64,000 nt of DNA from Hysterangium stoloniferum (lineage: Eukaryota; Basidiomycota; Agaricomycetes; Hysterangiales; Hysterangiaceae): contig WHVD01000055.1 of NCBI GenBank assembly GCA_015178975.1, forward strand, positions 310,001 through 374,000. Direction: 5' to 3'. Shown here piece after piece: positions 8,920-54,106 of the stretch; within the stretch, counting starts at the first letter, position 1, and every line of letters starts with the position of its first letter. Below the pieces are notes generated by a model. The model had not been told where the DNA came from. It ran no database searches and saw nothing but the letters and a program-made list of their open reading frames with translations. The position numbers and the translations under genes are program-made.

Positions 8920-9829
8920 TGTTATGATCAGAACTCCGACCAGACTCCAGACACCAACCAATATGCACCTGCACTCTAGATACATACATCGTTTTCAGTT
9001 AACTGGAATACCCACTGGGACCCAGATGTCAACCCGACCTTCATTATCTCATATATCAGTCACCGGAATACCCACCTGGACCCCATGCATGTCATCTCCA
9101 TCTATCCCCACCCCCATTCCATGCATCAGTCACTGGACTCTGTTTGGAAAACCTGACAGCCCTGTATCTGAGCCCCATTCCCATTATGGTTCAATGATCT
9201 GTCACATTTCGGACTCCGCTCCCGCCCCATTGCCATTTATGGTCTAATGACCTGTCATGATTCAGACTCCACCCCATTCCATCCCATTCCTAACACCTAA
9301 CTTGGTGTTTACTATCCTCGTTTTATGATTACCTGTTAAGCTTTCATTATTACTGGATTTGGTATTGCATACACTCAGCAGTCTATATAAACTAGTTAAT
9401 GTTGTACATACAATCCAGTCAGAAAATCAGCTTAGATTTCCCCCAGTAATCTTAGTTCCTTTTCTGCTCTAAACTTCTCTTTGAGAGTACCACTTCATCC
9501 TCGTCAGAGCCCACAAGCTCCAACTCTCCTATTGCTCAACCTCTGACTTTCCTATTGCTCAACCTCTGACTTTCCTATTGCTCAACCTCTGACTTATCAT
9601 CACTTGACCTCCTGACCAATCAATGACTCCATAGGTTTCCCACCATTGACCTCCCCAACTCCCAACCTATCACCTATCCCCAGACTCCCTGGGTTTCCCA
9701 TCCACCCATTTGAAATTGGATGTCACAATCTTGTGAGGGCACAGCCTATAAGCTGAAGCCAAGTTCTACTGGCTTTCCTGTGGGTTTCTCTGGAAACCCC
9801 CTGATAAGCTCTGTGTGCACCCCTTAACA
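8920..9829 (+). mobile_element. solo LTR, family I (TGTTATGACC type)
   Basis: The block starts TGTTATGATCAG and ends CCCCTTAACA. It is bounded by gctaa on both sides (8915-8919 and 9830-9834). Helitron copy B shows the same site uninterrupted near 17170, so the boundaries are exact. It has a TATA-like tatataaact near 9383 and the conserved stem motif at 9718-9766. Confidence 0.9.
9718..9766 (+). ncRNA. LTR stem motif, copy 1
   Basis: Closing stem GGAT 9718-9721 with GTTC 9763-9766 (two wobbles). Inner hairpin AGC/GCT around ctataa, followed by gaagccaa. It lies 63 nt before the LTR end. Confidence 0.6.
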
Positions 9830-11048
9830 GCTAACTGCATTGGAAACTGAATACAATGTAGTTTAAATGGCAGCTGATCATCATTTGTAATTATTTTCAC
9901 CTGTGAAATAAATGCCAGTTGCCCAGTACATAGTCCAGTTAGGATTCACACTTGAAGCAAATTATTTTCCATTTTCGTCGGTTGCAATTATGTCCCATTG
10001 AAAAGCCCCCTCTGTGGATCTATGTTCCATAACAGTGTCAAAGATACTCCTGGCTTCACCTCAAGTCAACTTGGGGAGATTTCACCAAAATTCAGGCTGT
10101 CCAAATACTCTATAGGATACATCTCTGTCTCACTGTCTCCCTCTGCAGTATCGGCACTGGTACACACAACTCTCCCCAGGGAATTTATTCAGAAGTTCTG
10201 AATTAATCTCATCAACCTCTGAATTCCTTGGACACAGAATTGCCCAGTCTAAGAAGTCTTCATCTTGCCAATCTCTTTGGTCTCTATCCACATGGATGTC
10301 TGGATATATCTCAGCAATTAGATCAGACATTTCTGGACCACAGATCATATGAGGAGGGATATCCATTGTATGATCCAAAGGTAAATCCTTTCCATGGCCT
10401 ATATCCAATAGCCACTGAGCAAACTGTTGACTTTGTGGATCATCCTGGTCTACCCACGTATTATTTTCCAAGAACAGTACCTTGGTATGCTTCCACAGTT
10501 CTGATTTCTGGATACATTGTCCAATGATCTGTTCTTTTGAACCCTTTGGTACAACAGGCAAAGTCTGCTGGAAGTCACCTCCCCAGGCAACAAGAATCCC
10601 TCCAAAGGGAAGATTGTCTAATAAATCCCTCAGGGTTCTGTCAACTGCCTCACATGTGAAACATGACTGCATTGGAACTTCATCCCAGATAATCAGTCAG
10701 ACTTTCTTCATAGGCTCTGCTTTTTCTGAACCTTTTTTGATATGACATAGAGCATCCTTCTCATAAGGAACAGGGATTGAAAATGTGCTGTGAGATGTCC
10801 ATCCACCCTTGAGAATCATTGATGTAATTCCAGAAGATGCTACACAACGCACAATGTAGCCCTTGGCACAACATGCATGTGCTAGAGTATTCCATACAAA
10901 GGACTTGCCAGTGCCACCTGGACCATTCATAAAAAACAATTTGCCCTCCTGCTGCTCACCCACTGCCTTCATGATAGTCTCAAAAGCAGCTATTTGTTCA
11001 GGATTGCACTTTTCAAGATTGGCTTGGGCACTGGCATGCTCAGTATTA

Positions 11049-12553
11049 CAGTGACTCAAAAAACCCTTTGCATGTTTTGTACTTCAGACTTATATCCCTG
11101 ATAACTCAAAGAATAAAAGTGCAGAAATATCAAGAATATTTGTGAATATGCTCTATCATATCTAGATTATGGAAGTATGGTGCCATTACATAAGCTCCAA
11201 ATATGGAAATGTTACAAATATTTATATACAAGAGACTCATGTGAATGGCAACTTTGATGACTATAAATGCTTATAGTCATGTGACCTTGTTGATTGTTTA
11301 CCTCCAATTAGGTCATATCAACAAAATCACATGATGTCACATGACCATGTTGTACTGGAGTATAAATATATCACCTTCAGCAACTAGTAATACCCCAATT
11401 CCCAAAATGCACACTTTGTCTCTTGCCAGCCAGAATCATATCCTCTCACTGCTTGATGCTGGTCATTCAGCTAGTCACATTACAGTTTCTACTGGTCATA
11501 GGATTGGCACAGTCTCAAAGCTTCACTCTAAGCATTGTTATCATCTCCCTAAGTCCATTGGTGGTTGACCCCAAAGCTTTCCCCTACCAACATTCACTAT
11601 GCACAGTGTCTCATCAGCTCTGGGAAGGCTGACACTGCTGTTGATGTGACCAAAGCCCTTAGGAATCTCACCAACCAGTCCATTTCTACCCAAACTGTGT
11701 GCAATCATCTCAAGATGGTTGGGATGAAGGCTGTGATGAAGAAGAAAAAAGCCCCTTCTTAGCAAGAAGCATAGGAAGGCAAGGATGGACTTTGCTATAG
11801 CACATCAGCATTGGACTGTGGAGGACTGGAAGAAGGTGGTGTGGTCTGATGAAACCAAAATCAACAGGTTGGGGTCAGATGGGAGGAAGTGGGTCTGGAA
11901 AAAGACTGGGGAGGGCTTGAGTAACAGGCTGGTTCAGGGGACTCAGAAGTTTGGAGGAGGATCTGTGATGTTATGGGGGTGCATGCTGTGGGAAGGACCT
12001 GGGTATGCTTGCAAGATAGATGGGAGGATGGATGGAGACCTGTATCTCAAGATTATGGAGGAGGACCTTCAAGCCAGCCTCAACTATTATGGAAAACCTG
12101 TGGATGATGTCATCTTCCAGCAAGATAATGACCCCAAGCATACTTGCAAGAAGGCCCAGACTTGGTTTCAAAATAATAATTTCAATGTCCTTGCATGGCC
12201 AGCACAGTCTCCAGACCTCAACCCCATTGAACACTTGTGGGATCATATCAAGAGGAGGCTGAGGGAGTATGAGATTGAACCAAAAGGGATACTGGAGTTG
12301 TGGGAAAGGGTGGAGGAGGAGTGGAACAAGATTGATGCAGAGGTGTGTCAGAATTTGATTGAGAGTATGTCTAGGAGGGTTGCAGCTGTGTTGAAGGCAA
12401 AGGGTGGCTATACCAAGTACTAAATATAAGTAGTTTTGTGGGTCAGAGTGGTCAGCAAAAAAACCCTTTGCATGTGTGTCTTGTATATAAATATTTGTAA
12501 TATTTTCATATTTGGAGCTTATGTAATGGCACCATACTTCCATTATCTAGATA
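11049..12553 (+). mobile_element. Tc1/mariner element with long inverted repeats
   Basis: The left end at TA (11047-11048) begins cagtgactcaaaaaaccc. Arms at 11159-11231 and 12481-12553 are inverted copies of about 73 bp with only a few mismatches. The string aaaaccctttgcatg occurs in the same orientation just outside the left arm (about 11060) and inside the right arm (about 12462), so the ends are rearranged rather than a simple TIR pair. The right edge abuts a Helitron 3' end at 12554. Confidence 0.7.
11408..12423 (+). pseudogene. Tc1/mariner transposase (two frame changes)
   Basis: The start MHTLSLASQNHILSLLDAG at 11408 opens a helix-turn-helix domain. The catalytic DDE domain follows: VWSDETKIN near 11840 (first Asp), QQDNDPKHT near 12120 (second Asp) and SPDLNPIEHLWDHIK near 12210 (Glu). 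It ends GGYTKY with TAA at 12421-12423, the usual C-terminus for fungal Tc1 enzymes. The frame changes near 11565 with a TGA, and again near 11757. The catalytic half from 11785 is one open frame of 212 codons. The enzyme would cut and paste at TA sites. Confidence 0.85.
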
Positions 12554-12690
12554 CAAGCTTAGGAACCCTTGCTACGCTGCAGGGCAGTTGCTTCACAACT
12601 GGTCCCACAACTTTGCTGTGGGCTCCAGCTTGTTGGGGGGTGAAGCCCCCCAAACCCCCCCATGTCAACAACTTTTAAGTATTTCTGAGA
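12554..12690 (-). mobile_element. Helitron 3' end, third copy
   Basis: It shares the 3'-terminal region of Helitrons A and B: the lower boundary acaagc, the agggcagttgc hairpin remnant, and the G6/C6 hairpin ttggggggtgaagcccccca near 12635. Minisatellites follow instead of helicase, so this may be the 3' end of a non-autonomous Helitron whose body is the satellite block to the right. Confidence 0.6.
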
Positions 12691-12711
12691 CTCATTGTTT
12701 GAATGGAAAGT

Positions 12712-12925
12712 GTTCAGAGAATGGAAAGTGTTCAGAGAATGGAAAGTGTTCAGAGAATGGAAAGTGTTCTCAGAATGGAAAGTGTTCTATGAACAGAAAG
12801 TGTTCTAAGAATGGAAAGTGTTCTAAGAACAGAAAGTGTTCTAAGAATGGAAAGTGTTCTAAGAACGGAAAGTGTTCTAAGAATGGAAAGTGTTCTAAGA
12901 ACGGAAAGTGTTCTAAGAATGGAAA
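12712..12925. repeat. 18-bp tandem repeat (gaatggaaagtgttctaa)
   Basis: About twelve copies. The period is a multiple of three, so frames stay open with an NGKCSK repeat, but nothing else suggests a gene. Confidence 0.85.
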
Positions 12926-12957
12926 ACATTACAAAAGGAAACATCAGTCACAAATGG

Positions 12958-13316
12958 AAGCCACAGCCACAAGAGGAAAAAATGGTTACAAAAGGAGACA
13001 AAGGTTACAAAAGGAAACAACGGTTACAAAAGGAGACAATGGTTACAAAAGGAAACAACATTTACAAAAGAAAACAACAGTTACAAAGGAAACAACAGTT
13101 ACACAGGAAACAACAGTTACACAGGAAACAACAGTTACACAGGAAACAACAGTTACACAGGAAACAACAGTTACACAGGAAACAACAGTTACAAAAGGAG
13201 ACAACAGTTACACAGGAAACAATGGTTACAAAAAGAGACAATGGTTACAAAGGAAACAATGGTTACAAAGGAGACAATGGTTACAAAAGGAAACAATGGT
13301 TACAAATGGAAAGAGT
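12958..13316. repeat. 18-19-bp tandem repeat (ggttacaaaaggaaacaac)
   Basis: About nineteen copies with sub-families: a run of perfect agttacacaggaaacaac units is flanked by ggttacaaaaggagacaat units. No gene is implied. Confidence 0.85.
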
Positions 13317-13359
13317 GGTTAAATTGACTCTCAACTGCAAGTAATTACTGTGGTCACTC

Positions 13360-13515
13360 AATTTATTTATTTTGATTTAATGTATTTTATTTTGATTTAA
13401 TGTATTTTATTTTGATTTATTGAATTTTATTTTATTTTATTGTTTTTCATTTCAATTTATTTTATTTTTAAACATTTTATATTCATTTATTATATTTTAT
13501 TTGAATTATTCTGAT
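13360..13515. repeat. low-complexity TTTATTTTGATTTA tract
   Basis: Near-perfect units of about 23 bp (attttattttgatttaatgt) at the start decay into T/A-rich sequence. Confidence 0.7.
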
Positions 13516-13519
13516 TTTA

Positions 13520-15632
13520 TTGAGGCTGATCAGAGGGGGATGGAGGAAGAAGGAAACAGTACACACAGCAGCTGGACAAAGAGAGAAGGAAATAGTACAC
13601 ACACTCACTGAAGAAAGGGTACACACACCACCTGGAGGAAAGAGAGGGCTGGTCAGAGGAGGATGGTGGAAGAAGGAAATGGTAGACACACTGCAGGAAA
13701 GAGAGAGCTGGTCAGAAGAGGATGGTGGAAGAAGGAAATGGTAGACACACACTGCAGGAAAGAGAGAGGAGGCCAATCAGAGGAACACGCACTGGCTGGA
13801 GGAAAGAGAATGGAGGCCAATCAGGGCAGGACAAAGAGAGAAGGAAAGGGTACACAAACCACCTGGAGGGAAGAGAGAGGGCCGATCAGAGCAGGATGGA
13901 GAGAGAAGGAAATAGTACACACACTTGCTGGAGGAAAGAGAGAGGAGGCCAATCAGAGCAGGATGGAGGGAGGAGGAAAGGGGACATGCACCTCCTGGAG
14001 AAAACAGAGAGGAGGACAAAGGGAGAAGGAAACGGTACACGCACTGGAGGAAAGAGAGAGGAGGCCAATCAGAGGATGAAGAGAGAAGGAAATGGTACAC
14101 AGACCTCCTGGAGGAAAGAGAAGGGACAAAGGGAGAAGGAAACGGTACATGCACTGGCTGGAGGAAAGAGAGAGGAGGTCAATTAGAGGAGGACGAAGAG
14201 AGAAGGAAATGGTACATGCACCTCCTGGAGGAAGGAGAGAGGAGGATGATCAGAGGAGGACAAAGGGAGCAAGAAACGGTACACCCACCGGCTGGAGGAA
14301 AGAGAGGAGGCCAATCAGAGGAGGACAAAGGGAGAAAGAAACAGTACACACACCGGCTGGAGGCAAGAGAGGAGGCCAATTAGAGGGGGATGAAGAGAGA
14401 AGGAAACGGTACACACACCTCCTGGAGGAAAGAGAGGAGGCCGATCAGAGGAGGACAAAGGGAGGAGGAAACAGTACATGCACCGGCTGGAGGAAAGAGA
14501 GAGGAGGACAGAGGGAGAAGGAGCAGTACATGCACTGGCTGGAGGAAAGAGAGAGGAGGACAAAGGGAGAAGGAGCAGTACATGCACCGGCTGGAGGAAA
14601 GAGAGGGGCTGATCAGAAGAGGACAGAGAGAGAGGGAAATGGAACGTGCACCGGCTGGAGGAAAGAGAGAGGAGGCAAATCAGTGCAGGACAGAGGAAGA
14701 AGGAAATGGTAGATGCACTGGCTGGAGGAAAGAGAGGGGGACAATCAGGAGGACAAAGAAAGGGGAAAGGGAATGAGAGAGGAAAGAGAGGGGGACAATC
14801 AGAGGAGGACAAAGAGAGAGGGGAAAGGGAATGCGCACTGGCTGGAGGAAAGAGAGAGGAGGCAAATCAGCGGAGGACAGAAGGAAATGGTAGACACACT
14901 GGCTGGAGGAAAGAGAGGGGGGCAATCAGAGGAGGACAAAGAGAGGGGAAAGGGAGTGCACACTGGCTGGAGGAAAGAGAAGGGGACAATCAGAGGAGGA
15001 CAGAGAGAGGGGAAAGAGAATGCACACCAGCTGGAGGAAAGAGAGATGAGGTAAATCAGTGCAGGACAGAGGAAGAAGGAAATGGTAGATGCACCGGCTG
15101 GAGGAAAGAGAGAGGGTCCCAATGAGAGGAGGATGGAGAGAGAAGGAAATGGTACACACACCTGGAGGAAAGAGAGGAGGATGATCAGAGGACAAAGAAA
15201 GAGGAAATGGTACACACACCAGCTGGATGAAAGAGAGAAGAGGTCAATCAGAGGAGGACAGAGAGGAGGACAGAGGGGAAAGGGAATGTGCACCAGCTGG
15301 AGGAAAGAGAGTGGAGGCAAATCAGTGCAGGACAGAGGAAGAAGGAAATGGTAGATGCACCGGCTGGAGGAAAGAGAGAGGGTCCCAATGAGAGGAGGAT
15401 GGAGAGAGAAGGAAATGGTACACACACTTGGAGGAAAAAGAGGAGGATGATCAGAGGACAAAGAAAGAGGAAATGGTACACGCACCAGCTGGATGAAAGA
15501 GAGAAGAGGTCAATCAGAGGAGGACAGAGAGAAGGAAATGGTACACACTTGCTGGAGGAAAGAGAGAGGAGGTGGATTAGCACAGGATGGAGGGAGAAGG
15601 AAAGAGTACATGCATCACTTGGAGGAAAGAGA
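13520..15632. repeat. 2.1-kb purine-rich minisatellite, unit about 50-70 bp
   Basis: Imperfect units follow the order ggaggaaagagagaggagg, ccaatcagaggaggac, aaagggagaaggaaatgg, tacacacaccggctgg. Subunits are deleted or duplicated, so period length varies. Two longer segments (about 15050-15280 and 15325-15540) are near-identical, which shows recent higher-order duplication. The plus strand is strongly purine-biased. Long open frames on both strands are by-products. Confidence 0.9.
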
Positions 15633-15649
15633 GAGGATCCGCTGTGAAT

Positions 15650-16056
15650 GGAAGTGGGTGTGCAGTGGTGGATGGGTGCGGGTGGATGGGTGTGCAGTGG
15701 ATGGGTGCAGGTGTGTGGTGGATGGGTGCAGGTGCGCAATGGATTGGTGCGTGGTGGATGGGTGCAGGTGCACGGTGGATGGGTGCAGGTGCACGGTGGA
15801 TGGGTGCAGGTGTGTGATGGATGGGTGTGCGGTGGATGGGTGCAGGTGTGCGGTGGATGGGTGCAGGTGTGCGGTGGATGGGTGCACAGTGGATGGGTGC
15901 ACAGTGGATGGGTGCATGGTGGATGGGTACACGGTGGATGGGAGCAGGTGCACGGTGGATGGGAGCAGGTGCACGGTGGATGGGAGCAGGTGCACGGTGG
16001 ATGGGAGCAGGTGCACGGTGGATGGGAGCAGGTGCACGGTGGATGGGTGGATGGGT
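15650..16056. repeat. ~21-bp minisatellite (ggtggatgggtgcaggtgcac)
   Basis: About twenty units. The right part (15950-16040) has five almost perfect copies with gggagcaggtgcac, so this end was homogenised most recently. Confidence 0.88.
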
Positions 16057-16059
16057 GCA

Positions 16060-16640
16060 CGGTTGAAAATACCGTGCGTGTATAAAATAATTCTACGCAT
16101 CTATAGAATGCTTCTGCGCATGCATAACATAATTCTGTGTGGGCAAAAATGCTCCCACGGTGTGGCAATAATACACCTGTGGCATGCCAAATACTCCCGT
16201 GATCACATAATTGCTTCTGCATTGGCTGAAATGCCTCCGTGATGACATAATCTGGGCGCCTGCCTTACTAAAAAAAAGCAACATGGACCCACAATAATAG
16301 ACCTCCCGATATGTACTGTAATCCTTCTCCAGGCACTGGCTTTGAAATGCCTCCGTGAAGGGCATGGGAAGTGCATACACAAGGGGCATGGGAAATATCT
16401 GCACGAAGGGCATGGAAAATGAGTCGTGGGAAATCTGTTGGTGAGAGGCGCGGGAAATTCTTCTGTACCACTGGAAATGCTCCCACACAGAATACTCCCA
16501 TGGCATGACAGAATACTTCTGCCCCCATCACAAAATAGTCCCGCAGTGCCCGAAATGCTTCTGCGAATGCAGAAATACTCCTGCGCTGACTAATTGTGAC
16601 ATTCTGGCACTAACACGCCGTCATTTCTGGGCAGCTTAAT
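16060..16640. repeat. degenerate ~20-25-bp repeat (AAATRCTCCCRYGG type)
   Basis: Short phrases such as aaatgctcccac, aaatactcccgtg and gaaatgcctccgtg recur every 20-30 bp with varied linkers. The same phrases reappear at 23535-23660. No coding frame. Confidence 0.6.
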
Positions 16641-16737
16641 GGGGGAAGCCTTTGGGCACTCCGCACCCTTGTGAAAGGGCACCTAGCGGTGCCAAAAAGT
16701 GCCCACGGACCCACCAAGCAACTTTACTATATATTGA

Positions 16738-16870
16738 CAAGCCTGGGAACCCTTGCTATGCTGTGGGGCAGTCACTTTGTGACCTGCCCCACTGCTCGCT
16801 GCGGGCTCCGGCTTGTTGGGGGGCAAAGCCCCCCAACCCCCCCCCACGTCCATGACTCTTAAGTATTTCT
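16738..16870 (-). promoter_or_regulatory. Helitron 3' terminus with two hairpins
   Basis: Hairpin 1: GTGGGGCAG 16763-16771 pairs with 16779-16792 around ttt. Hairpin 2: TTGGGGGGC 16816-16824 pairs perfectly with GCCCCCCAA 16828-16836 around aaa. Read on the minus strand, the three copies all end CTTG followed by T. Helitrons classically end CTRR with a T after the insertion point, so the site fits in position but CTTG is a variant. Confidence 0.6.
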
Positions 16871-16969
16871 GAGCACTTCTAAGTATTCTGAACATTTCTA
16901 AGTATTTACATATCACAACCACTGTTCAAAAAAATCAATTAAAACAAATTCAATAAATACATTAAAACT

Positions 16970-20274: not shown

Positions 20275-20317
20275 CTTAGCCCAGTTTATATAGTATATAT
20301 TGTATCATAATCATCAG

Positions 20318-21950: not shown

Positions 21951-22623
21951 CTGGGGGAGGGAGAGTGGAAGGGAGAAAGTGTGGCAGCCTCATATTACAA
22001 CCGTGTCGCAACCTGACAGTCCCCAAGGTTATCGCCACCTATAAATGATTCAAGTTATCGTTCAAGTCATCACATTGGAAACCATCGGCCTCCCAATGCT
22101 TACGTATGCTTGCGTGGTGATCAAACTCCATTTACACCCCTGTCAAAATATACTCATACTATCTGGTTAAACTCTGATGTCCCTTTTTATTATGATGATC
22201 CGTTCTACTCTATGTTTCACATATGTCTATATATACTTGTAACCCTTGGACTATTTTCTTTTTTCATAATTCCACTCTTGGGTATTTCATGGCCTCCAAA
22301 CTAATCGTAACCTTCCCGTTCCTAGTCAAGCTTATTTGTCAATACCGTTTTCCTCTCTTCTCCTAGTTAGTATTTCCTAGGCGCCAAATACTTGTATATG
22401 AACCCACTGTAGTTGTAGTTATTAGGCAATCAGAATATCGACTCAGAACACCCTCTTACACCTCTAGAAGCCTCGTACTAAGTATCCCGTTATCCGCCTT
22501 CACGTGCGCTCACCCACTCTCGGTTCCCGACCCCTTGGCCCGACACTCGACTTATCCTTCAGTTCCAATCAGTAGTTCACTGAGAGGTACTCATTAGGAC
22601 TAGTCTTCACCCATCCGAAATTT

Positions 22624-22680
22624 AAGGACACCCAACGGATATTTGCAAGGGCACAGCACATAAGCTGAAGCCAAGTCCTT
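22624..22680 (+). ncRNA. LTR stem motif, copy 2
   Basis: AAGGAC 22624-22629 pairs perfectly with GTCCTT 22675-22680. The inner hairpin AGC/GCT around acataa is intact. Confidence 0.65.
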
Positions 22681-22697
22681 CCGATCGGTCCCCATTG

Positions 22698-23464
22698 TGT
22701 CATATATTTTATCACTTTGTTTCTTTGTTTAACCTTTAAGGGACATTAGTCAAATAGTAGAGGACTGGATCCTTTAACTTTGGCTCAAGAGTTTAAGATG
22801 CCATTGTTCTGATAACATAAGATTTATTGCTAGCTCTAAACCCTAGAATTAGCATATCTTAACCCTAAGTAGCTAGGTGGCACTGCCATGGAAACCAGCA
22901 GAGTCATGGATTACATACTAATAAGGTATCTCTAGCCCTTATACTACATATTGAGGGAGATGACTCATTGGTGAGTCATATCAATATGACTATGCAATGA
23001 GTTATGATCAGAGCTATGACTCAGATACATAGCCATAGCTGGTTGGATGACTCTGAAATACACTTATGATTCAAGTATGGGAAATACTGACTCATTCTCC
23101 TAGTCACATTACTTAGTAAGCAGGATCCTGGACTAGTATAAATACAGGCTCAAATCATGTATTTAGAATATCATTCAATATCACATCACTTGCTCATTTA
23201 GCTACACTTGCCTACTAGGTCCACACATTGTGCTTAAGTTGAGTACTCTCCTTGCCAATCTGTTGACCATCTTGTTTCCTTGAGTTGAGCTTTCTCCTCG
23301 GAAAAGGGACACGGGCACGTAGTTGAATAAAAGTGGATACTGATTTAATTGACAAAACTCCTACATACAGATTAATTTGAATTTGAATCTCCTTTCTCAA
23401 GCTACGCTACTTAACTCAAGTAAAAAGAGTTTACAAGTACACTAAATAGTAATAATACATTACA
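22698..23464 (+). mobile_element. solo LTR, family IV (TGTCATATAT), 767 bp
   Basis: Begins TGTCATATATTTTATC and ends AATACATTACA, with cattg at 22693-22697 and 23465-23469. A TATA-like agtataaatac lies near 23136. Nested inside the family-II LTR. Confidence 0.85.
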
Positions 23465-23534
23465 CATTGGCCTACCAACACTAGTCAGTTTTCAGTTCTT
23501 AACACCTCAAGGCTTTACAGTGGGCTTCTGGGTT

Positions 23535-23665
23535 TCCCACAGCTATGCTCCTGCATGTCACAAAACATCCCAGAATGCTCCTGTGGCACCAAAAATACTC
23601 CCATACTTACAGAAATACTCTCATGAATGCAAAAAAAGTTCCACAAATACTTCCACACTAACTAA
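23535..23665. repeat. degenerate repeat shared with 16060-16640
   Basis: Phrases gaatgctcctgtgg, aaatactcccatac and aaatactctcatg recur. No coding frame. Confidence 0.5.
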
Positions 23666-26600: not shown

Positions 26601-29304
26601 ACGCCTATCATTTGGTCTGGATCGCCATGGGTGACAAATGGAAAACCACTTTTAGAACCCGCTATGGGCCCTTCAAGTGCTTGGTGATGCCCTTTGGACT
26701 CACAAATGCTCTGTCTGTTTTTCAATGTTTTATCAATGACATTTTTTCCAACATGCTCGATGTATGCATCATTGTTTACTTGGATGACATTCCTATCTAC
26801 TCCGAGGACCCTGCAGAACACAACAAACAAGTCTGTGAAGTTCTCCAGAGACTCAGACAACATGGTTTATTCACGAATGGTAAAAAATGTATTTTTGACA
26901 CCAACTCCATGGAATACCTGGGTTTCATAATGGGACCCGACGGACACCGCATGGATGAAACTAAAGTGCAAGTCATCAAAGATTGGCCTGAACCCCGAAA
27001 AGTTAAAGATATACAATCCTTCCTCAGCTTTGCCAATTTTTACAGACAGTTTATCCAGGGATATTCCGACATCACAGTTCCCCTTACCCATCTTACACAC
27101 AAGGATACTCCGTGGAATTTTAACGATAAGTGTCAAAAAGCTTTCAATCTTTTAAAAAATTCTTTTTCTTCAGCTCCTATTGTGTCGCATTGGAAACCGA
27201 ACTTCCCACTCATTGTTGAAACAGATACCTCGGACTATGCACTTGGAGCCATTCTGTCTATCCAGGACTCCAACAGAGAAGTCCACCCCATGGCTTTTCT
27301 GTCCCAGACCTTTACCGGAGCAGAGCTCAACTACGATGTTCATGATAAGGAACTCCTGGCAATTTTTTCAGCTTTTAAAGTGTGGTGACACTATTTGGAA
27401 GGCTCGGGAACTCCGATTGACATTGTAACAGATCACAAAAACCTGGAATACTTTTCTACTACAAAACCTTTGACCCGTCGGCAGGCCTGCTGGTCTGAAT
27501 ATCTATCTGCTTTCAACATGATTATCCATTTTTGACCTGGCCATCTCGGCGGCAAGCCCAACACTTTAACTAGACGATGGGACATCTATCCTAAAGAGAG
27601 GAGCAACGACTATGCCACGGTAAACCCACACAACCTGAATCCTATTTTCACGAATCAGCAACTTACCGCATCGGTCCACACAACTTTCCTCGTCCATCCC
27701 ATTGTCCATGGAATTATCATTATGGATATTGAGAAGTTACATCAAGATATTCTATTGGCAATTCCACTAGACCCAATTACTAAAGCTCATCTTGACAATC
27801 CCATGGACCCCAATCAACCCCGGTGGTCTCTTGATCAGCATGGTTTCATTAGACTTCACGATAGGATCTATGTACCAGACTCCGACGGCCTCTGCCTCAG
27901 GATCCTTCAATACAAACATGATCATCCACTTTCAGGACATTTCAGGTACAACAAAACTCTATCATTAATAAGAAGAGAATACACTTGGCCCGGACTCCGT
28001 GGATTTGTTAAGCACTATTGTAAATCTTGCACTACTTGTCCCCACTCGAAATCTCAGTGACACAAGCCATACGGCCTTTTGAAACAACTCCCAGTACCAG
28101 AACACCCATGGAATTCCATCTCTATGAATTTCATTAAACACCTACTGGATTCCGAAGGCTTTTCCACCATTCTAGTCATTGTTGACAGATTCTCAAAACA
28201 AGGTATATTCATCCCTACTCATGATACAATTACGTCCGTGCAGTTAGCAGAGCTTTTCATTATCCACATATTTTCCAAGCATGGAGTTCCATCCCATGTA
28301 ACTTCTGATCGAGGATCAGAGTTCGTGTCTCACTTCTTTAGATCCCTCGGGAAATCCTTGGACATGAAATTACATTTCACATCCAGACATCACCCGGAAG
28401 GTGATGGACAAACCGAACGTATCAATCAGATATTGGAACAATATCTCCGCATATATTGCAACTATCAACAGGACAATTGGAAATCCTTGTTACCACTTGC
28501 AGAATTTGCTTACAACAATGCACCCTCAGCCACTACTGGCATTTCCCTGTTCTTTGCAAATAAAGGATATAATCCAAATATTACAGTACATCCAGAACGA
28601 AATCTCACCTCTGCTCACGCTCAAGAGTTCACCACAGACCTCCACGAGCTGCATGAGGAACTCCGGACTGCAATTAGGTCCACCCAAGAGCAATACCAAC
28701 TTTCAGCAGACAGACACCAGATCCCACCATCCAACTTCAAGATTGGCGATCATGTTTTTGTCAAAGTGTTACGACCGTGTCGTAACCCATGTCGCAACCC
28801 GATGGTCTCCGAATACTACAGTCTATCAATGTTCGAAGTTATTGATCAAGTCATCATTTCGGCAACCTTCGGAACACCGACACTGACGTATACCTTCGCG
28901 GCGATCAAACCTCGTTTACGCCCCTGTCAAATATACTCTACCATCTGGTTATGCTTTGATACGTCCCCTTTCATTATGATGATCCGTTTTACTCTATGTT
29001 TCACATATGCCCATATATACCTGTAGTCCGTGGACTATTCCCTTTTCTCATAATTCCGCTCTCAGCTAAATCTCGGCTTCCGATCTTATCGTAACTTTCC
29101 GGTTCCTAGTCAAGCTCATTTGTCAATGCCGTTTTCCGCTCTTCCCTTAGTTAGCAGTTTCTAGACGCCGATAACCTATATATAAACCCGCTGTAATGTA
29201 ACTACTAGACAATCAGAATATCGACTTAGATACCCTCTAATTTCCGACTCCATTATCTATTCACGACCACCACATTCCGACTCCATCCGATTTACGATTC
29301 AACC

Positions 29305-29445
29305 TACCCCGACACTCTCAGTCTCCGACTCTCTCAGTCTCCGACACTCTCAGTCTCCAACTCTCTCAGTCTCCGACTCTTTCAGTCTCCGACTCTCTCA
29401 GTCTCCGACTCTCTCAGTCTCCGACTCTCTCAGTCTCCGACCCCT
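29305..29445. repeat. 16-bp tandem repeat (ctctcagtctccgact)
   Basis: About nine copies inside the family-II LTR. The sister LTRs at 21993 and 35134 lack the array, so it expanded in this copy or subfamily. Confidence 0.85.
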
Positions 29446-29536
29446 CAACCCAACCCTCAACTTATCCTTCGGTTTCCGATCGGTAGTTTACCGTGAGGTT
29501 TACTTGACAGGACTAGTTTTCGCCCCCCCGAAATTT

Positions 29537-29593
29537 AAGGACACCTGACGGTAACTTGCGAGGGCGCAGCACATAAGCTGAAGCCAAGTCCTT
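29537..29593 (+). ncRNA. LTR stem motif, copy 3
   Basis: AAGGAC 29537-29542 pairs with GTCCTT 29588-29593. Inner AGC/GCT hairpin, then gaagccaa. It lies 51 nt before the LTR end. Confidence 0.65.
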
Positions 29594-29922
29594 CCGTTCG
29601 GTCCCTGTCGGCCAGCCGACATCCGTCAGTTTCTGCTCTTAACACAAAGCTCAATTCTTTCAGACTACCCATCCATCAAAAAAGCTTGCTGAAAAATATT
29701 TAGGTCCGTTTGAAATAATCACACAAGTAGGTTCAGTTTCTTGGACCCTATGGCTTCCAGATAGCATGTGTGTGGTACACCCGGTATTTCATGTTTCTAT
29801 GTTAGAACCTTGTACTGCTAACACTATCCTGGATCACGTGCAATCTCTGCCCCCTCTGGTCATTATTGATGGAGAACCCAAGTTTGAAATCTCGCAAATT
29901 TTAGATTCGAAAATTGACAAGC

Positions 29923-33625: not shown

Positions 33626-33926
33626 TGTCAGGGGACAACCTTAAGTTCCTCAAATTCACTTTTGACTTGTCAGAGTCTAGTCTCATAAGTCCAGGGTAAA
33701 GGTACCTTGTTTTTATCACATTTTCAAACTCCGCTACACTTTAGTTAGTCACACGCTAGCTGAGGGTTCCTTAGACTTTTCTCTTCGGATTCCCTCTGCT
33801 AGGTAAGTAGTACTGCAATTTGTATGTATATAACTAGATAGATATAAACTAACTTCGGATTCCCTCTGCTAGTGCCCCAACTCTGTCTTAGTGCGAGTCA
33901 GTGCGGTCTAGAGAGTCACCCTTACA
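33626..33926 (+). repeat. Gypsy-2 5' LTR
   Basis: 301 bp. It contains the phrase cttcggattccctctgctag twice, about 77 bp apart, which is also seen in the other LTR copies. Confidence 0.93.
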
Positions 33927-35133: not shown

Positions 35134-35696
35134 TGTTACGACCCGTTCCCGGATGTTTCAATATCCGACTTCTGATCTCCCACCTTCGATATCCGATATC
35201 CGACTACGGAACATCATAGTTACTGTATCATCCGCGTTCTTCGTTTGTTCCGCATTTGGTAATTTGTCCGTTGACAAGTATTCACTCGTTTGTTGTTGTA
35301 TTCCCGTCTCGGAATATTGTCTTCCTAATATGTCTTATTGTATTTCCGTTTTAAGAACACTTCCGTTTCCATCTTATTATGGTCTCAGTTTGTAGTACAA
35401 TAACGAGTAGACTTATATTAGTTTCCGCGAATTTGTACTTTACTTTAGATCTGATATCGACTTAGTTTCTTATTCCTCCTCCCGTCTTTCTGTACGCTCG
35501 ATATTCGGAACTCTTCGGAACTCTGAATATCCATATCTTCCGTCGTTAGTTCACTTCCGAAATTAAGGACATTGAGCGTTTGCGTAGAGGCACAGCACAT
35601 AAGCTGAAGCCAACGTCCTGACCCTATCCACGAGTTTCCGACTTCCCGGTGACTTCCCGATAGTTCCGGAATAAGTTCCCGACACGGCACTTAACA
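35134..35696 (+). mobile_element. solo LTR, family II, 563 bp
   Basis: TGTTACGACCC...GCACTTAACA bounded by atggc (35129-35133 and 35697-35701). It is shorter than its sisters because the middle is different. As Gypsy-2 is young, this is one of the youngest insertions here. Confidence 0.9.
35565..35619 (+). ncRNA. LTR stem motif, copy 4
   Basis: AGGAC 35566-35570 pairs with GTCCT 35615-35619, with one extra C before the right arm. Inner AGC/GCT hairpin intact. Confidence 0.6.
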
Positions 35697-39822: not shown

Positions 39823-40123
39823 TGTCAGGGGACAACCTTAAGTTCCTCAAATTCACTTTTGACTTGTCAGAGTCTAGTCTCATAAGTCCAGGGTGAAGGT
39901 ACCTTGTTTTTATCACATTTTCAAACTCCGCTACACTTTAGTTAGTCACACGCTAGCCGAGGGTTCCTTAGACTTTTCTCTTCGGATTCCCTCTGCTAGG
40001 TAAGTAGTACTGCAATTTGTATGTATATAACTAGATAGATATAAACTAACTTCGGATTCCCTCTGCTAGTGCCCCAACTCTGTCTTAGTGCGAGTCAGTG
40101 CAGTCTAGAGAGTCGCCCTTACA
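39823..40123 (+). repeat. Gypsy-2 3' LTR
   Basis: 301 bp, preceded by a G-rich polypurine tract (aaaagggggggtga). Confidence 0.93.
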
Positions 40124-43317: not shown

Positions 43318-43366
43318 GGACAACACAATCTCATGAGGGTGCAGCCTATAAGCTGAAGCCAAGTCC
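43318..43366 (+). ncRNA. LTR stem motif, copy 5
   Basis: GGAC 43318-43321 pairs with GTCC 43363-43366. Inner AGC/GCT around ctataa, the same variant as copy 1 (both family I). Confidence 0.62.
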
Positions 43367-46805: not shown

Positions 46806-46826
46806 TATTTCTCATGAAAATATTCA

Positions 46827-47691: not shown

Positions 47692-47711
47692 ATAGTAAAA
47701 TAATCATAGGT

Positions 47712-47914: not shown

Positions 47915-48590
47915 ATTACACAATCTAACAGTTAAACAGCTATACTTCAGCTCAAATATTGACATTGAATCTGGTTTAATTCTCAGTCTACCTTAGCCCT
48001 TTGTCCCCATTCTTTCATCTGAAAATATGCTAAAATTATGACACTATTCAGCAAATATAGTTGCCACCATTCTTGAGCTGTTTTACAGAAATACAAAGTT
48101 ATCATCATAATTTTCAACTGATTGGATTTGTATGACTTTGGTCAAGACTCAAAAACCATTTTACATTGAGTGATACAATGCTTCAACATTGATAGCACTT
48201 CTCCAGTAAACTCTTCTGGTTTGTTCACGACAATTTCATTTTCTTTTGAAGTAGATATTTGTTCTTTGAGGACTTTCCCAAAGGTGTCTCCAAATTGTCA
48301 AAACATTTCAAGATTTCCTAAAGGTATTGATTCTGGAGGGGGGGTATTCAGGTCCTTGAATTGGTAGAGTTGGTGATTTTGTATACTCTTTGATTGTTAG
48401 GACTGCAAAACCTGCCAGGTCCTGGTCCCCATCCTTTAAGTAGTTCACTCTCTTTTACAGTATTACTCACCAATTGGGCTCCACCCAGATATTCCAGAGT
48501 TTTAGATGCTTTAAGAGCTTTATAGGGTCCTGACCCTTTTGGGCCCCCATAACTCATTTTCAACCTGGCAACTCTTCCAGCACCCAGACA
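47915..48590. other. no gene recognised
   Basis: Unique-looking sequence. A minus-strand frame near 48350-48560 has no motif I know. Confidence 0.4.
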
Positions 48591-48982
48591 TCAGCACCCT
48601 GGACTATGGGGCCACTACCTTGGCATCCCAAAACTTGGTTTACTGTAGATTACCCCTCTAGTCATTCCATTCCATCTCCATCTTGATGCTCTCCCTTCAT
48701 CTGTTCTATGTGTAAACATTATTTGTGATCTCATACCCTTTAGAATACTTTTGTTACATCCCATTTAGTTTTAGTTTGATCCTTGCCCCCTTCCATGCTT
48801 CCCTTGACTATCACTACCTCTCACTTCCTTGATCAGACCTCCAGCCTGTCAGGGCACTGTTTAAACAATTTACATTTAGTTTTATTTTAATTATATTATG
48901 TAATTTATTTCAGGCATATATGTGTGATGCCATGCAAACAACTGTTTGTAATGACATCATGTGAACCACAATGTCACAATGT

Positions 48983-50104
48983 GTGCAATGCAAGGACACG
49001 TGCAATGCAAGGACACGTGCAATGCAAGGACACGTGCAATGCAAGGACACGTGCAATGCAAGGACACGTGCAATGCAAGGACACGTGCAATGCAAGGACA
49101 CGTGCAATGCAAGGACACGTGCAATGCAAGGACACGTGCAATGCAAGGACACGTGCAATGCAAGGACACGTGCAATGCAAGGACACGTGCAATGCAAGGA
49201 CACGTGCAATGCAAGGACACGTGCAATGCAAGGACACGTGCAATGCAAGGACACGTGCAATGCAAGGACACGTGCAATGCAAGGACACGTGCAATGCAAG
49301 GACACGTGCAATGCAAGGACACGTGCAATGCAAGGACACGTGCAATGCAAGGACACGTGCAATGCAAGGACACGTGCAATGCAAGGACACGTGCAATGCA
49401 AGGACACGTGCAATGCAAGGACACGTGCAATGCAAGGACACGTGCAATGCAAGGACACGTGCAATGCAAGGACACGTGCAATGCAAGGACACGTGCAATG
49501 CAAGGACACGTGCAATGCAAGGACACGTGCAATGCAAGGACACGTGCAATGCAAGGACACGTGCAATGCAAGGACACGTGCAATGCAAGGACACGTGCAA
49601 TGCAAGGACACGTGCAATGCAAGGACACGTGCAATGCAAGGACACGTGCAATGCAAGGACACGTGCAATGCAAGGACACGTGCAATGCAAGGACACGTGC
49701 AATGCAAGGACACGTGCAATGCAAGGACACGTGCAATGCAAGGACACGTGCAATGCAAGGACACGTGCAATGCAAGGACACGTGCAATGCAAGGACACGT
49801 GCAATGCAAGGACACGTGCAATGCAAGGACACGTGCAATGCAAGGACACGTGCAATGCAAGGACACGTGCAATGCAAGGACACGTGCAATGCAAGGACAC
49901 GTGCAATGCAAGGACACGTGCAATGCAAGGACACGTGCAATGCAAGGACACGTGCAATGCAAGGACACGTGCAATGCAAGGACACGTGCAATGCAAGGAC
50001 ACGTGCAATGCAAGGACACGTGCAATGCAAGGACACGTGCAATGCAAGGACACGTGCAATGCAAGGACACGTGCAATGCAAGGACACGTGCAATGCAAGG
50101 ACAC
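48983..50104. repeat. perfect 17-bp satellite, exactly 66 copies
   Basis: The unit gtgcaatgcaaggacac is repeated 66 times (1122 bp) with no variant unit seen. Each unit junction makes the palindrome CACGTG. As 17 is not a multiple of three and the unit has no stop in any frame, all six frames stay open. Those open frames are not evidence of a gene. Confidence 0.97.
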
Positions 50105-51430
50105 ATGGAACCACATGTGCAATGGATCCTAACACTATAATGATTAAGTGTGCATATTTCTGGGAAAGCCATAGGTTCTGGGCAGGACATTGGCATAGAG
50201 AAGTGATGAGGGTTGCCAGGGATGATCAAGTGAAGGTTGGGTCATGGATCAAAGATGTATATAGAACAAACACAGGGAGTCCAGCCAGAATCCAGGTCAG
50301 GAAATGACCAAGGACACTTGGAGATGCTATCTGGGAAAGGGTGGAGTCTGGCAGGTTCCAAGACATAAGATAAAGTGTCTAGTTGTGAGTGGAATATCTG
50401 ACTGGGGACTGAGGTAAAGGGTACTTGAGGGATGAGGGTCAGGTTCTGGTGGATTCCAGACCTTGATACTAGTCCAAAAAATGGTTTGGAACCTGATATT
50501 GTATCTGGGAAATAGTCTGTAAAGCTCCTGGGAATGGATCTTCACATCATCCTCCTCATCCTCCTCATCATCATCAACAGGTTTTCTCTTGCCCTGCTGA
50601 TACTATCAGTAACAATGGAAAATAATATTAAAAGAATATAATACTGGACACCTTTCATGGCCCCACTGCTACCTTACCCTTTCCTTTTGGCTTCCCCTTT
50701 GCCTCACTCGTGCCCTCCCCTTTGCTGCCAATGCCACTCTCCAATCATCCTCCTCCTTCCTCCTCCACTCAGCAGCCTCCCATTTGACCTCATGATGTTG
50801 TGCCTCTTTGGCCTCCCATAGCTCTCAACATAGTCTTGTAATAGTGTCTTTGTCACTGGGACTAGGAAGGAAGAGAGGAGTGGAAGGCATGGGAGCAAGG
50901 ACAATGAGTATATTTTCAACAACTTATATTCCCTTAGCACCCATTTTGACTAAAAACCTGTAGCCACAGATATTCACCAAAGCAAGCTCCACAAGGTGCC
51001 ACTGACACCATTTTATAGAAAGGTCTCAAAGGGTCTTGACCCGATGGGGGATACTGTTAGGATCCCAGTCAGTTGGCCCCTTGCAACCTTGTTTTACCAC
51101 CCCCACCCTCCAGCATCCTGCTATTGGTACCCCTGGCCATAGTGTCACCCACAGTGGCCTGACACTTAGTTCACTATGGCTTTCTTTTTTCATCATCCCA
51201 TCCCATCTCCATCCCAATGCTCTCCTGTCACCAATTCTATGTGCAAATGTTATTTGCCACTACATATGCTTTAAAATACTTTTGTTACATCATATTTAAT
51301 TCCAGTCTGATCCCTACTCCTTCCCATGCTTCCTGTTAAGATCTAAGCAAGGGGGCAAAAAGGGATGATTTCAGAGGTCCAAAATAGGGAATCATACTAA
51401 TTGGGAGGTCCATTTCTATAAGGCAAAGTG

Positions 51431-51483
51431 GAACTTGGATTCAACATATGTGTTGCACCCTCACATGAACTGTTAGGATGCTC
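51431..51483 (-). ncRNA. LTR stem motif, copy 9
   Basis: Read on the minus strand, GAGC pairs with GTTC (plus 51480-51483 and 51431-51434). The inner hairpin is AAC/GTT instead of AGC/GCT. Confidence 0.55.
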
Positions 51484-51800
51484 TGGCATTTCAAACAGAG
51501 CAGATAGTACGATAAAAGCTAAAGACAACACTTAGCTCAATTGACTGGAGGCCAAAAATACCAAGAGTTGTAGAGTGAAGAGTATTAAGAGGAATGTAAG
51601 AGGTCTTAAACAACAGGGGGGGTTGTGAAGACCCATTCCCAGGAACCCCATGGAGTATCCTCCCGATATTATATTAGGTTCCGAACCACCTTCCAGACCA
51701 GTATCAAAATCTGGAATCCACTGGAACCCGACCCTCATCCCTTAAGTACCCTTTGACTCACATCCCATTCTGTCAGTCTGCCCCCCGACTAGACACTTTC

Positions 51801-52647
51801 TGTTATGACCTGGAATCTGTCAGACTCCACTGGACCCACATGTCAACCTGTTTATACCCAACTCTCTGTGCCCATCTCTGGACTCTGACTGGACTCCCAG
51901 AACCCCTCTAACAGAGCATAGAACCCTGCTCCCACAGTCATTGGACTCCACCAGACCCACATGTCAACCTGTCTATATCTGACACTGTGTCTCATGCACC
52001 AGTCCTCAGACTTTACCAGACCCACACAACAACCTGTTTATGCCTGTCACTGGACTCCAACCAGACTCCCAGAACCCCTCTAACAGAGCATAGAACCCCA
52101 CTCCCATTATGGTCAAATGATCTGTCATGTTTTGGACCCCACTCCCATTCCATTCCATCCCTAATACCTAGTTTGGTATTTCCTCATCTCATTTTATGTT
52201 TACTTGTTTTGCACCTCATTATTACCATATTTGGTATTATTACATTCCACAGTCTATATAAGTCTCCCATACTCATGTACTTACAATCCAGTTTCAATAT
52301 TGAACTAGTTACACCCTGAATATGTCCTGATCCAGTCTCTACTCCTATTGTCTATCTGCATGCTCAATTCCCAGAACTCCCACAGGAACTCCAGAATCTA
52401 CATCTTCCTTGTAGGTATTCCATCAGCTCAAAATATGGACACCTGAATGAGTGTACGAGGGTGCAGCACATAAGCTGAAGCCAAGTCCATCTCAGTACTC
52501 TGGTAATTATTCTGATACACTCCTTGTACTAATCCCCGGAAACACCCTGGACTATTACCCAGGGACTCCACAGGACCTTCCCAGAATGTGTTCAGAATAA
52601 TTACTGAAAAATATGTAGGACTTCCAGATCTTTGTTCAGAACTTAAC
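51801..52647 (+). mobile_element. LTR, family I-like
   Basis: Starts TGTTATGACCTGGAATC and shares the family-I middle (gtttggtatttcctcatctc, then an agtctatataag TATA region near 52251). It ends near gaacttaaca. No matching target duplication, so it may be a fragment. Confidence 0.55.
52435..52490 (+). ncRNA. LTR stem motif, copy 6
   Basis: ATGGAC 52435-52440 pairs perfectly with GTCCAT 52485-52490. Against copies 2 and 3 this swaps an A-U pair for a U-A pair. Inner AGC/GCT hairpin intact. Confidence 0.68.
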
Positions 52648-52709
52648 AGGGGTAATCTAGGTGTTAAGTTGTGTGTCACAAGGTCAGAAGTCTGACAGAG
52701 TCCAAATGG

Positions 52710-52767
52710 AAGGTTGTGGCTTCAGCTTGTGTGCTGCACCCTCACAAAGTTACTGCCAGTTGTCCTT
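52710..52767 (-). ncRNA. LTR stem motif, copy 8
   Basis: On the minus strand AAGG (plus 52764-52767) pairs with CCTT (plus 52710-52713). Inner AGC/GCT around acacaa. Confidence 0.5.
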
Positions 52768-54052
52768 AGATTTCAAAGGTGTGAGAACTTATCTATCAGG
52801 AATCCAACCAGTGGATGAACTGTCAGACTCCCAGGTCAGTTGAGGGCAGAGAGAGAGAGAGGAGATTGGAGGTCCAAGAGAGGAATGAAGAACTAGTAGA
52901 GTAACTTAGTTAATATTCTGATTGTCCTATACAGTAACTACTTTACAGTTCAGTATATATATGGATTTCTGGCATCTCACAGTACTAATGAGGAGACAAG
53001 GAAAGTACCTTACATAAGTAGAACAAGAGCATAACTAATCGGGAATCCAATATGTACAGGTTTCTGATACTCAGAGAAATACAAACTAGGATGACAGGCA
53101 TAGCATATTCAGACATATGGACACACTAATCAGGACATAAGGAGACAGCCCAAAAAGGAAATCCAGGTTCAGATGGGTATCTGAGAATGAGGGGCAATGT
53201 CAGATGGTTCGAAGGCCATACAGGATTCCAAGCATGAGTCATAGCACTAGGTCAAGTTTCAAACTACAAAACCGTAGCATACATGGTAGAAACTATTATA
53301 CAAAGGTATAATGGAGAGTTGGAGGTCCGATTAAGGAAGTGGAAGTAGTGATGGGTCAAAAAGAAGTAGGGGGAAGAATGGGATCCAAATGAGACTAAAT
53401 ACAACATAGGAAAGTATTCTGAAAAGGTGTGAGGTGGCAAATAATGTTTACAGGTAGAACAGATGAAGGGAGAGCATCAGAATGGAGATGGAACAGAATG
53501 CCTAAAGGGGTATTCTACAATAGAACAGGTTTTGGGATGCTGAGGTGGTGGTACCATATTCCAGGCTCCAATGTTGGGGTGCTGGAGGGTTACAAGGGTA
53601 TGAACAAGTTGCAGGGGCTATAAGATGGAGACAATGACATAAACCAAGTGTTGGGGTCCTGAGGTGGTGGCTCCAGATCCCAAGGCACTGATGTCAGGGT
53701 CCCAGAAAGGTTATCAAGGTAAGACCAAGTTGTGGGGGCCTGAAAGGGTGAGGATCCTAACACTTCCTTTCACCCATCATTACTTCTCACTTCCTGATTG
53801 GCCTTCTGATCATCCATTATACTTTTGTATAAAGTTCCTACCATGTATGGTACTATTCTCCAGTTCTAGTATTGACTTAGATTACCCCCATTTAGTCTTC
53901 AGTCACCTTACTCCCTCTCTAATACCCTTGAAGATGTCATTGGCAAGCCACAACTCTTTACCCCACAACTTTTAGCATCTCAGCCCTCCAGTCAATGGAG
54001 CTAAGTGTTGTCTTTAGTCTATATCATACTATCCACTCTGCTCAAGATACCA

Positions 54053-54106
54053 GAGCACCTTAACAGTTTGTATGAGGATGCAACACATAAGTTGAAGCCA
54101 AGCTCA
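54053..54106 (+). ncRNA. LTR stem motif, copy 7
   Basis: GAGC 54053-54056 pairs with GCTC 54103-54106. Inner AAC 54083-54085 pairs with GTT 54092-54094. Both helices differ in sequence from copies 2-6 yet still pair. Confidence 0.65.

What the first reader, a model, noticed from the sequence alone, without database searches (positions are those of the whole stretch)
9718..54106. A covarying structured RNA motif shared by unrelated LTR families
Nine places carry a 50-60 nt segment: 9718-9766, 22624-22680, 29537-29593, 35565-35619, 43318-43366, 52435-52490, 54053-54106 on plus; 51431-51483 and 52710-52767 on minus. Each has a closing stem, a variable 20-25 nt stretch, then a near-invariant block around CACATAAGCTGAAGCCAA. 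The closing stem changes sequence but keeps pairing: AAGGAC/GTCCTT, ATGGAC/GTCCAT, GAGC/GCTC. The inner hairpin AGC/GCT becomes AAC/GTT in two copies. It lies 50-80 nt before the LTR end where that end is known, in LTRs whose other parts do not align. Paired changes in two helices point to selection on RNA shape. A role in packaging, dimerisation, reverse transcription start, translation or self-cleavage is open.
Basis: partly seen in the sequence, partly recalled or inferred. Interest (0 to 1): 0.9.

Follow-up and report, generated by a model that had tools for sequence, protein, structure and literature searches.

The report
Conserved leader hairpin in fungal LTRs
Several old copies of a related group of fungal jumping genes keep the same small folded RNA signal near the end of their terminal repeats, probably a tag the element needs to copy itself, although what it does has not been tested.

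Summary
All nine copies exist, and a covariance model finds just these nine in the window: 57.6-82.9 bits, next match 15.0. The LTRs are not unrelated. They share a TGTTAYGACC-like start, a TATA box 32-37 nt before a conserved block, the motif and a CTTAACA end. Six of nine are solo LTRs with perfect 5-bp target duplications. The motif lies downstream of the inferred transcription start, so in the R-U5 leader RNA; ATG is depleted there (20 seen, 31.5 expected).

Structure: a closing stem and an inner hairpin, modestly supported (tree-based null: covariation score 17/5000, fold energy 4/1000). Double changes fall on two branches only. Some wobble pairs fit CpG decay. Minimum-energy folding of the leader does not predict the closing stem. 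No Rfam family or tRNA matches.

Best reading: a cis-acting leader element for retrotransposition (packaging or start of reverse transcription), a new member of a known kind. Function is untested, and no second genome could be searched.

The parts
9718..9766 (+). motif copy A: GGAT/GTTC closing stem, CAGC/GCTG hairpin with loop CTATAA
   Evidence: 63.2 bits
22624..22680 (+). motif copy G: AAGGAC/GTCCTT
   Evidence: 81.1 bits
29537..29593 (+). motif copy B, closest to the inferred ancestral form (little CpG decay): closing stem 29537-29542/29588-29593, hairpin 29563-29565 + 29567-29570 / 29577-29580 + 29583-29585, hexaloop ACATAA 29571-29576
   Evidence: (82.9 bits)
35565..35619 (+). motif copy C: AGGAC/GTCCT with one extra C before the 3' arm
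   Evidence: (57.6 bits)
43318..43366 (+). motif copy H: GGAC/GTCC; 3' end of its LTR is lost
   Evidence: 67.1 bits
52435..52490 (+). motif copy D: ATGGAC/GTCCAT (paired A-U to U-A change)
   Evidence: 77.2 bits
54053..54106 (+). motif copy I: GAGC/GCTC closing stem, CAAC/GTTG hairpin
   Evidence: 69.2 bits
51431..51483 (-). motif copy F: GAGC/GTTC, CAAC/GTTG
   Evidence: 69.4 bits
52710..52767 (-). motif copy E: AAGG/CCTT outer pairs kept, two inner closing pairs broken
   Evidence: 68.2 bits
8920..9829 (+). solo LTR A, TGTTATG...CTTAACA, TSD GCTAA; empty site present in a sister copy of the host repeat near 17166
28767..29644 (+). solo LTR B, TGTTACG...CTTAACA, TSD CAAAG, inserted in the integrase gene of another Gypsy element
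35134..35696 (+). solo LTR C, TSD ATGGC, inserted between gag and protease ORFs of Gypsy element 33626-40123
51624..52648 (+). solo LTR D, TGTGAAG...CTTAACA, TSD GGGGT (next to a G run), nested in LTR F
52662..53246 (-). solo LTR E, TGCTATG...CTTAACA, TSD CCTAG (found by the relaxed search), nested in LTR F
51334..53762 (-). solo LTR F, TGTTAGG...CTTAACA, TSD GGAAG (found by the relaxed search); 809 bp net of the two nested LTRs
21993..22733 (+). LTR G, decayed ends (TATTACAACC...TTTAAC), no clear TSD
51055..54201 (+). LTR I, split by LTR F (51055-51333 and 53768-54201); 5' end inferred from similarity only, no TSD
29210..29229 (+). conserved block CAATCAGAATATCGACTTAG of LTR B, about 33 nt after the TATA box: inferred transcription start region

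Best explanation
The motif is a cis-acting RNA element in the R-U5 leader of one divergent lineage of fungal LTR retrotransposons (Ty3/Gypsy-like ends). Shown by sequence: nine copies, in LTRs with conserved ends, promoter region and motif, downstream of the inferred transcription start. Supported by comparison: a stem-loop CAGC-(A/C)(C/T)ATAA-GCTG, extended by GGC/GCC across an A/AA internal loop and closed by a 4-6 bp stem after an AA spacer. Inferred: the conserved apical part is recognised by the element's own Gag or reverse transcriptase, marking the transcript for packaging or for the start of reverse transcription, while the closing stem only has to pair. This would explain why LTRs of 563 to 1025 bp with diverged U3 regions keep chiefly the integrase ends, the promoter region and this element.
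For: Nine copies, 0.06 expected; nine strong model hits and a gap of over 40 bits to the next. Six LTRs with perfect 5-bp TSDs define ends, with the motif 48-158 nt before them. The motif is the most conserved part of the eight-LTR alignment (20-column mean 0.94; start block 0.79; 5' end 0.56). A TATA-like box lies 32-37 nt before the block in nine of nine (for eight, for F; nearest box taken where two were listed), and the motif 111-319 nt after the block. Leader ATG count over all nine is 20 against 31.5 expected (10 of 2000 shuffles as low); in six copies (grouped after seeing the counts) 4 against 16.4 (0 of 2000); U3 shows no depletion. Alignment fold: 3 of 2000 column shuffles and 4 of 1000 tree simulations as stable. 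Four pairs with double changes; slid controls 0 or 1.
Against: Double changes lie on two branches only (three pairs on the F/I branch, one in D), and 95 of 5000 simulations have as many such pairs. The closing stem has pair probability 0.22 or less in both contexts tested for all nine; the inner hairpin fails in copy I and is 0.31-0.52 in copy A. With 90/40 nt flanks the default alignment fold keeps only the hairpin; RIBOSUM scoring keeps both. Single-sequence folds are unremarkable (z -0.18 to -2.20). The antisense alignment folds nearly as well (-8.45 against -9.50), and G-U against A-C cells are 7 to 5, so folding does not fix the strand. The core has no CpG and would outlast its surroundings. 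In six pairwise comparisons the core exceeds the flanks only moderately, and in D/A the U3 is as high (0.79 against 0.78). D, F and I show no ATG depletion (16 against 15.3). No internal region, PBS or autonomous partner could be examined; nothing separates packaging from reverse transcription, export or translation.
Confidence: 0.5

Rival explanations
1. A post-transcriptional or translational leader element (export, stability, ribosome loading) acting on the mRNA rather than on packaging or reverse transcription.
For: The leader is depleted of ATG (20 against 31.5 over nine copies), so it is probably scanned by ribosomes; the motif lies in that leader.
Against: ATG depletion says that ribosomes pass, not that the motif helps them. 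No distance to a start codon could be measured.
Confidence: 0.2
2. A DNA-level signal (transcription factor or chromatin site) downstream of the promoter; the apparent stems are incidental.
For: The core is conserved letter by letter, and most hairpin pairs never vary (4 of 7). The closing stem is not predicted in context, and the antisense strand folds nearly as well.
Against: Arms about 40 nt apart change together (GGAC/GTCC to GAGC/GCTC; AT to TA), and sliding the partner by 1-3 columns loses the pairing (90% of cells to 13-39%).
Confidence: 0.17
3. An undescribed small self-cleaving ribozyme in the LTR, giving a retrozyme-like life cycle.
For: Compact fold with conserved unpaired letters (ATAA loop, AA bulge, AA spacer) in an LTR. 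The six copies placed by TSDs are solo LTRs, which the retrozyme model would allow (PMC4918200, passages).
Against: No credible Rfam match at E up to 10 in four stretches holding five of the nine copies or at gathering scores in the whole window. TSDs are 5 bp, those of retrozymes 4 bp. LTR recombination makes solo LTRs without any ribozyme.
Confidence: 0.06
4. Simple shared ancestry with slow decay: a CpG-free stretch looks conserved among old LTR copies, without function.
For: LTRs are homologous; CpG is nearly gone in five of nine (A, D, E, F, I: 0-9 each) and the core has no CpG.
Against: The core stands out over diverged LTRs with large gaps elsewhere, and the paired changes do not involve CpG (my reading of the alignment).
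Confidence: 0.07

Closest known systems
Ty1 and Ty3 leader (5' UTR) RNA structures of yeast
   Same: RNA of the 5' leader of a fungal LTR retrotransposon; leaders there carry packaging, dimer or reverse-transcription signals (PMC4974528 and PMC11381356, passages).
   Different: No sequence link was tested. Ty1 uses a pseudoknot with R, Ty3 a bipartite PBS. Here one short stem-loop is kept over diverged LTRs and the PBS is unknown.
Conserved R-region stem-loops of retroviral LTRs
   Same: Residual conservation in long R regions is linked to stem-loops (PMC3601003, passages).
   Different: In the passages seen, that survey's chromovirus model (Sushi, mostly zebrafish LTRs) is described with an AT-rich promoter stretch, AATAAA and att ends, no such motif.
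Plant retrozymes (hammerhead ribozymes in LTRs)
   Same: A compact RNA motif and the end boxes are what diverged LTRs share (PMC4918200, passages).
   Different: No hammerhead or other Rfam match; 5-bp TSDs; no retrozyme unit seen.
Helenus, Ajax and Cassandra (LTRs with tRNA or 5S sequences)
   Same: Fungal Helenus has 5-bp TSDs and an RNA-like stretch in the LTR (PMC10886601, abstract).
   Different: No tRNA or 5S match here; a TATA box suggests Pol II (inference).

Membership tests
LTR retrotransposon (LTR of) | TG..CA ends with a 5-bp target duplication | tested here: met
   6 of 9 with perfect 5-bp TSDs; 22624 and 54053 without a clear one, 43318 has lost its 3' end
Ty3/Gypsy chromovirus (Sushi-type) LTR | att ends TGTYANR and CNTNACA (PMC3601003 Table 3) | tested here: inconclusive
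   met by A, B, C and by the ends of F as read; 5' ends of D (TGTGAAG) and E (TGCTATG) do not fit
Ty3/Gypsy chromovirus (Sushi-type) LTR | associated gag-pol with chromodomain integrase | not testable with these tools
   the six placed copies are solo LTRs; the two Gypsy elements seen in the window have other LTRs, without the motif
Self-primed (Tf1-like) element | PBS after the LTR complementary to the RNA 5' end | tested here: inconclusive
   no LTR-like end followed by an 11-mer with 10 or more matches, but no internal region was found next to the six placed LTRs
Retrozyme | hammerhead ribozyme in the LTR | tested here: not met
   no Rfam match: whole window at gathering scores; five of nine copies at E up to 10
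Retrozyme | 4-bp TSD | tested here: not met
   5-bp TSDs
Helenus/Cassandra-type (Pol III RNA in the LTR) | tRNA- or 5S-derived sequence | tested here: not met
Retrotransposon leader RNA element | lies in the transcribed leader | tested here: met
   by inference from TATA box, start block and ATG depletion; no transcript data
Retrotransposon leader RNA element | structure kept by compensatory change | tested here: met
   modest: 17 of 5000 tree simulations reach the score; two branches
Retrotransposon leader RNA element | needed for packaging or reverse transcription | not testable with these tools
   needs experiment

The most novel reading that the evidence does not exclude
The element is a new small ribozyme, or a packaging element with its own RNA fold, shared across a whole fungal LTR lineage. 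A five-base strand just upstream complements its hexaloop (37 of 45 cells, but with no covariation), which could give dimer contacts or a pseudoknot. It could drive retrozyme-like spread of non-coding LTR units, which would account for finding only solo LTRs among the six placed copies.
Probability: 0.07. Interest if true: 0.88.

Novelty: new member of a known kind. Interest (0 to 1): 0.45.

Why it matters
Sequences needed to package Ty1 and Ty3 RNA are described as not precisely defined even in yeast (PMC4974528, PMC11381356; passages). A short stem-loop kept over a diverged LTR lineage would give a portable marker for finding solo LTRs and non-coding relatives, and a defined target for packaging and reverse-transcription tests in filamentous fungi.

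Tried and rejected
Known RNA families: Rfam at gathering scores on the whole window gave none. At E up to 10, four stretches holding five of nine copies gave six matches far below their gathering scores or none. tRNA: none.

Relatives elsewhere: the exact core in viral contigs gave 0; a degenerate core 0; a looser core 4 stretches with no model hit in any of them (two of the four also read). Genome contigs gave 1 match without a closing stem in the DNA around it (read; partial model hit of 12.4 bits, E 0.57). One RT query in viral contigs gave no relatives. No whole genome is held. So there is no second species.

Pseudoknot between the hexaloop and the UUGYG strand: 37 of 45 cells pair against 7-26 at the fourteen other offsets tried, but shuffling partners gives 35.6 on average (5289 of 20000 reach 37), and the offset was picked by eye. 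It stays a lead only. A second hairpin in the variable stretch is not in the alignment folds.

G-U pairs as proof of RNA: rejected, because the C-to-T change at the third GGC/GCC pair sits in a likely former CpG (GGGCGC to GGGTGC), and G-U against A-C cells are only 7 to 5.

The 8112-8164 model hit (15.0 bits, E 0.13) has no CTTAACA end in the sequence printed after it, to 8300. Fungal branch-point reading: GCTGAA does not fit the CTRAY consensus, which I recall and took from no call.
Full report
What is there. The core CACATAAGCTGAAGCCAA occurs nine times with at most three mismatches, at the stated places and strands; 0.06 are expected in shuffles. A covariance model built from the nine and run over the whole window without filters returns these nine at 57.6-82.9 bits and then drops to 15.0 bits. 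The nine built the model, so their own scores are expected; the absence of a tenth is the news.

What carries it. Scans for TG..CA ends with target duplications (strict; relaxed) place six of the nine copies in LTRs with perfect 5-bp duplications: 8920-9829 (GCTAA), 28767-29644 (CAAAG), 35134-35696 (ATGGC), 51624-52648 (GGGGT), 52662-53246 minus (CCTAG) and 51334-53762 minus (GGAAG). The last contains the two before it. LTR 35134-35696 lies between the gag and protease ORFs of a chromodomain Gypsy element whose own LTRs are 33626-33926 and 39823-40123. LTR 28767-29644 breaks an integrase gene, and an open integrase-like frame resumes after it. For 8920-9829 the empty site exists in a sister copy of the host repeat. 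The 22624 copy has decayed ends, the 54053 copy has no target duplication, and the 43318 copy has lost its 3' end. The six with duplications are solo LTRs; for the other three this was not settled.

Related, not unrelated. Aligning eight LTRs (43318 left out; F and I with the nested inserts taken out; the ends of G and I inferred) shows four shared blocks: the 5' end (TGTTAYGACC-like, 20-column mean 0.56), a block CAATCAGAATATCGACTTAG (0.79), the motif (0.94) and the CTTAACA end. A TATA-like box lies 32-37 nt before the block in nine of nine (for eight, for F; the nearest box was taken where two were listed). The block match itself is weak in C, D, F and I (12-14 of 20). I infer that the block marks the transcription start. 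The motif then lies 111-319 nt into the transcript. Over all nine leaders there are 20 ATGs against 31.5 expected (10 of 2000 shuffles as low). The deficit is in six copies (4 against 16.4, 0 of 2000; grouped after seeing the counts), while D, F and I have 16 against 15.3. U3 shows no depletion (73 against 67.4). D, F and I are heavily CpG-decayed (0-6 CpG each), which may explain their ATGs, but E and A are decayed as well.

The structure. The consensus is GGC-A-CAGC-loop-GCTG-AA-GCC, closed after AA by a 4-6 bp stem. RNAalifold finds it on the nine and, with 4 or 5 closing pairs, in all six leave-out sets. Its energy is reached by 3 of 2000 column shuffles (z -4.6) and 4 of 1000 tree simulations folded anew. 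Four pairs show double changes. Against a null that evolves the columns on the tree, the covariation score is reached by 17 of 5000, pairs with double changes by 95, cells by 72 and percent paired by 40. So support is real but modest. Three of the four double changes sit on the branch to copies F and I, one on copy D.

Results against it. The closing stem has probability 0.22 or less in both contexts tested for all nine, and the inner hairpin is lost in copy I and only 0.31-0.52 in copy A. With longer flanks the default alignment fold keeps only the hairpin; RIBOSUM scoring keeps both stems. Single folds are unremarkable (z -0.18 to -2.20). The antisense alignment folds at -8.45 against -9.50, and G-U against A-C cells are 7 to 5, so the strand rests on the promoter, not on the fold. 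The C-to-T changes at the third pair of GGC/GCC fit CpG decay of GGGCGC, so these G-U pairs are no evidence of RNA. The core contains no CpG and could outlast its surroundings without selection. In six pairwise comparisons its advantage is moderate: core 0.91 against 0.74-0.88 elsewhere in B/G, 0.88 against 0.69-0.82 in A/H, 0.81 against 0.71-0.81 in F/I, 0.86 against 0.68-0.79 in B/E, 0.90 against 0.76-0.87 in C/B, and none in D/A (0.78 against 0.66-0.79).

What it is not. No Rfam family at gathering scores in the window; at E up to 10 nothing credible in four stretches with five of the copies; no tRNA. A catalogued ribozyme or a 5S/tRNA origin is therefore not supported. A new ribozyme cannot be excluded by sequence.

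Most likely mechanism. The parts kept over diverged LTRs are integrase ends, promoter region and motif: what an element needs to be mobilised, also by proteins made elsewhere. A conserved apical loop with a stem that only has to pair suggests a protein-bound RNA. I commit to a leader signal read by Gag or reverse transcriptase (0.5), with export or translation next (0.2) and a DNA site third (0.17). The binding partner, packaging and reverse transcription are inferred, not shown.

Literature. In ten searches no listed title or abstract start names this motif; one search searched full text for a 12-letter piece of it and found none. I saw: PMC3601003 (passages), PMC4974528 (passages), PMC10886601 (abstract and outline), PMC11381356 (passages), PMC4918200 (passages), PMC5640933 (passages; the word retrotransposon does not occur in its main text). 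The library is open-access only, and Repbase or Dfam entries could not be checked, so the LTR families themselves may be catalogued.

Limits. No other fungal genome could be searched.

Noticed in passing
window 48891-50132: Long, nearly perfect array of a 17-bp tandem unit (68 registers), near a piece (48576-48843) similar to the F-type LTR.
   Followed up: no
window 51055-54201: Three-level nest of LTRs: LTR I split by LTR F, which holds LTRs D and E.
   Followed up: yes
window 20635-31246: Gypsy element with 1.3-kb LTRs (20635-21951, 29923-31246) carrying two separate insertions of motif LTRs (G and B).
   Followed up: partly
window 8491-11046 and 16702-18859: Two copies of a repeat with a PIF1-like helicase ORF (Helitron-like); the second holds a fragment, 18034-18481, of the same LTR lineage that ends just after the TATA box region.
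   Followed up: partly
window LTRs A-I: CpG nearly gone in A, D, E, F and I (0-9 each), 10 in H (partial), 26-57 in B, C and G: a gradient in age or in methylation-driven decay.
   Followed up: yes
window 28767-28788: LTR B starts with an inverted repeat (GTTACGAC...GTCGTAAC) right at its 5' end.
   Followed up: no
window 12665-16100: Dense arrays of diverged tandem repeats with units of about 18, 65-67 and 21 bp.
   Followed up: no
window 2067-7123: Copia-type element with 97% identical terminal repeats (2067-2336, 6854-7123) and a 16-bp tandem array after the first.
   Followed up: no
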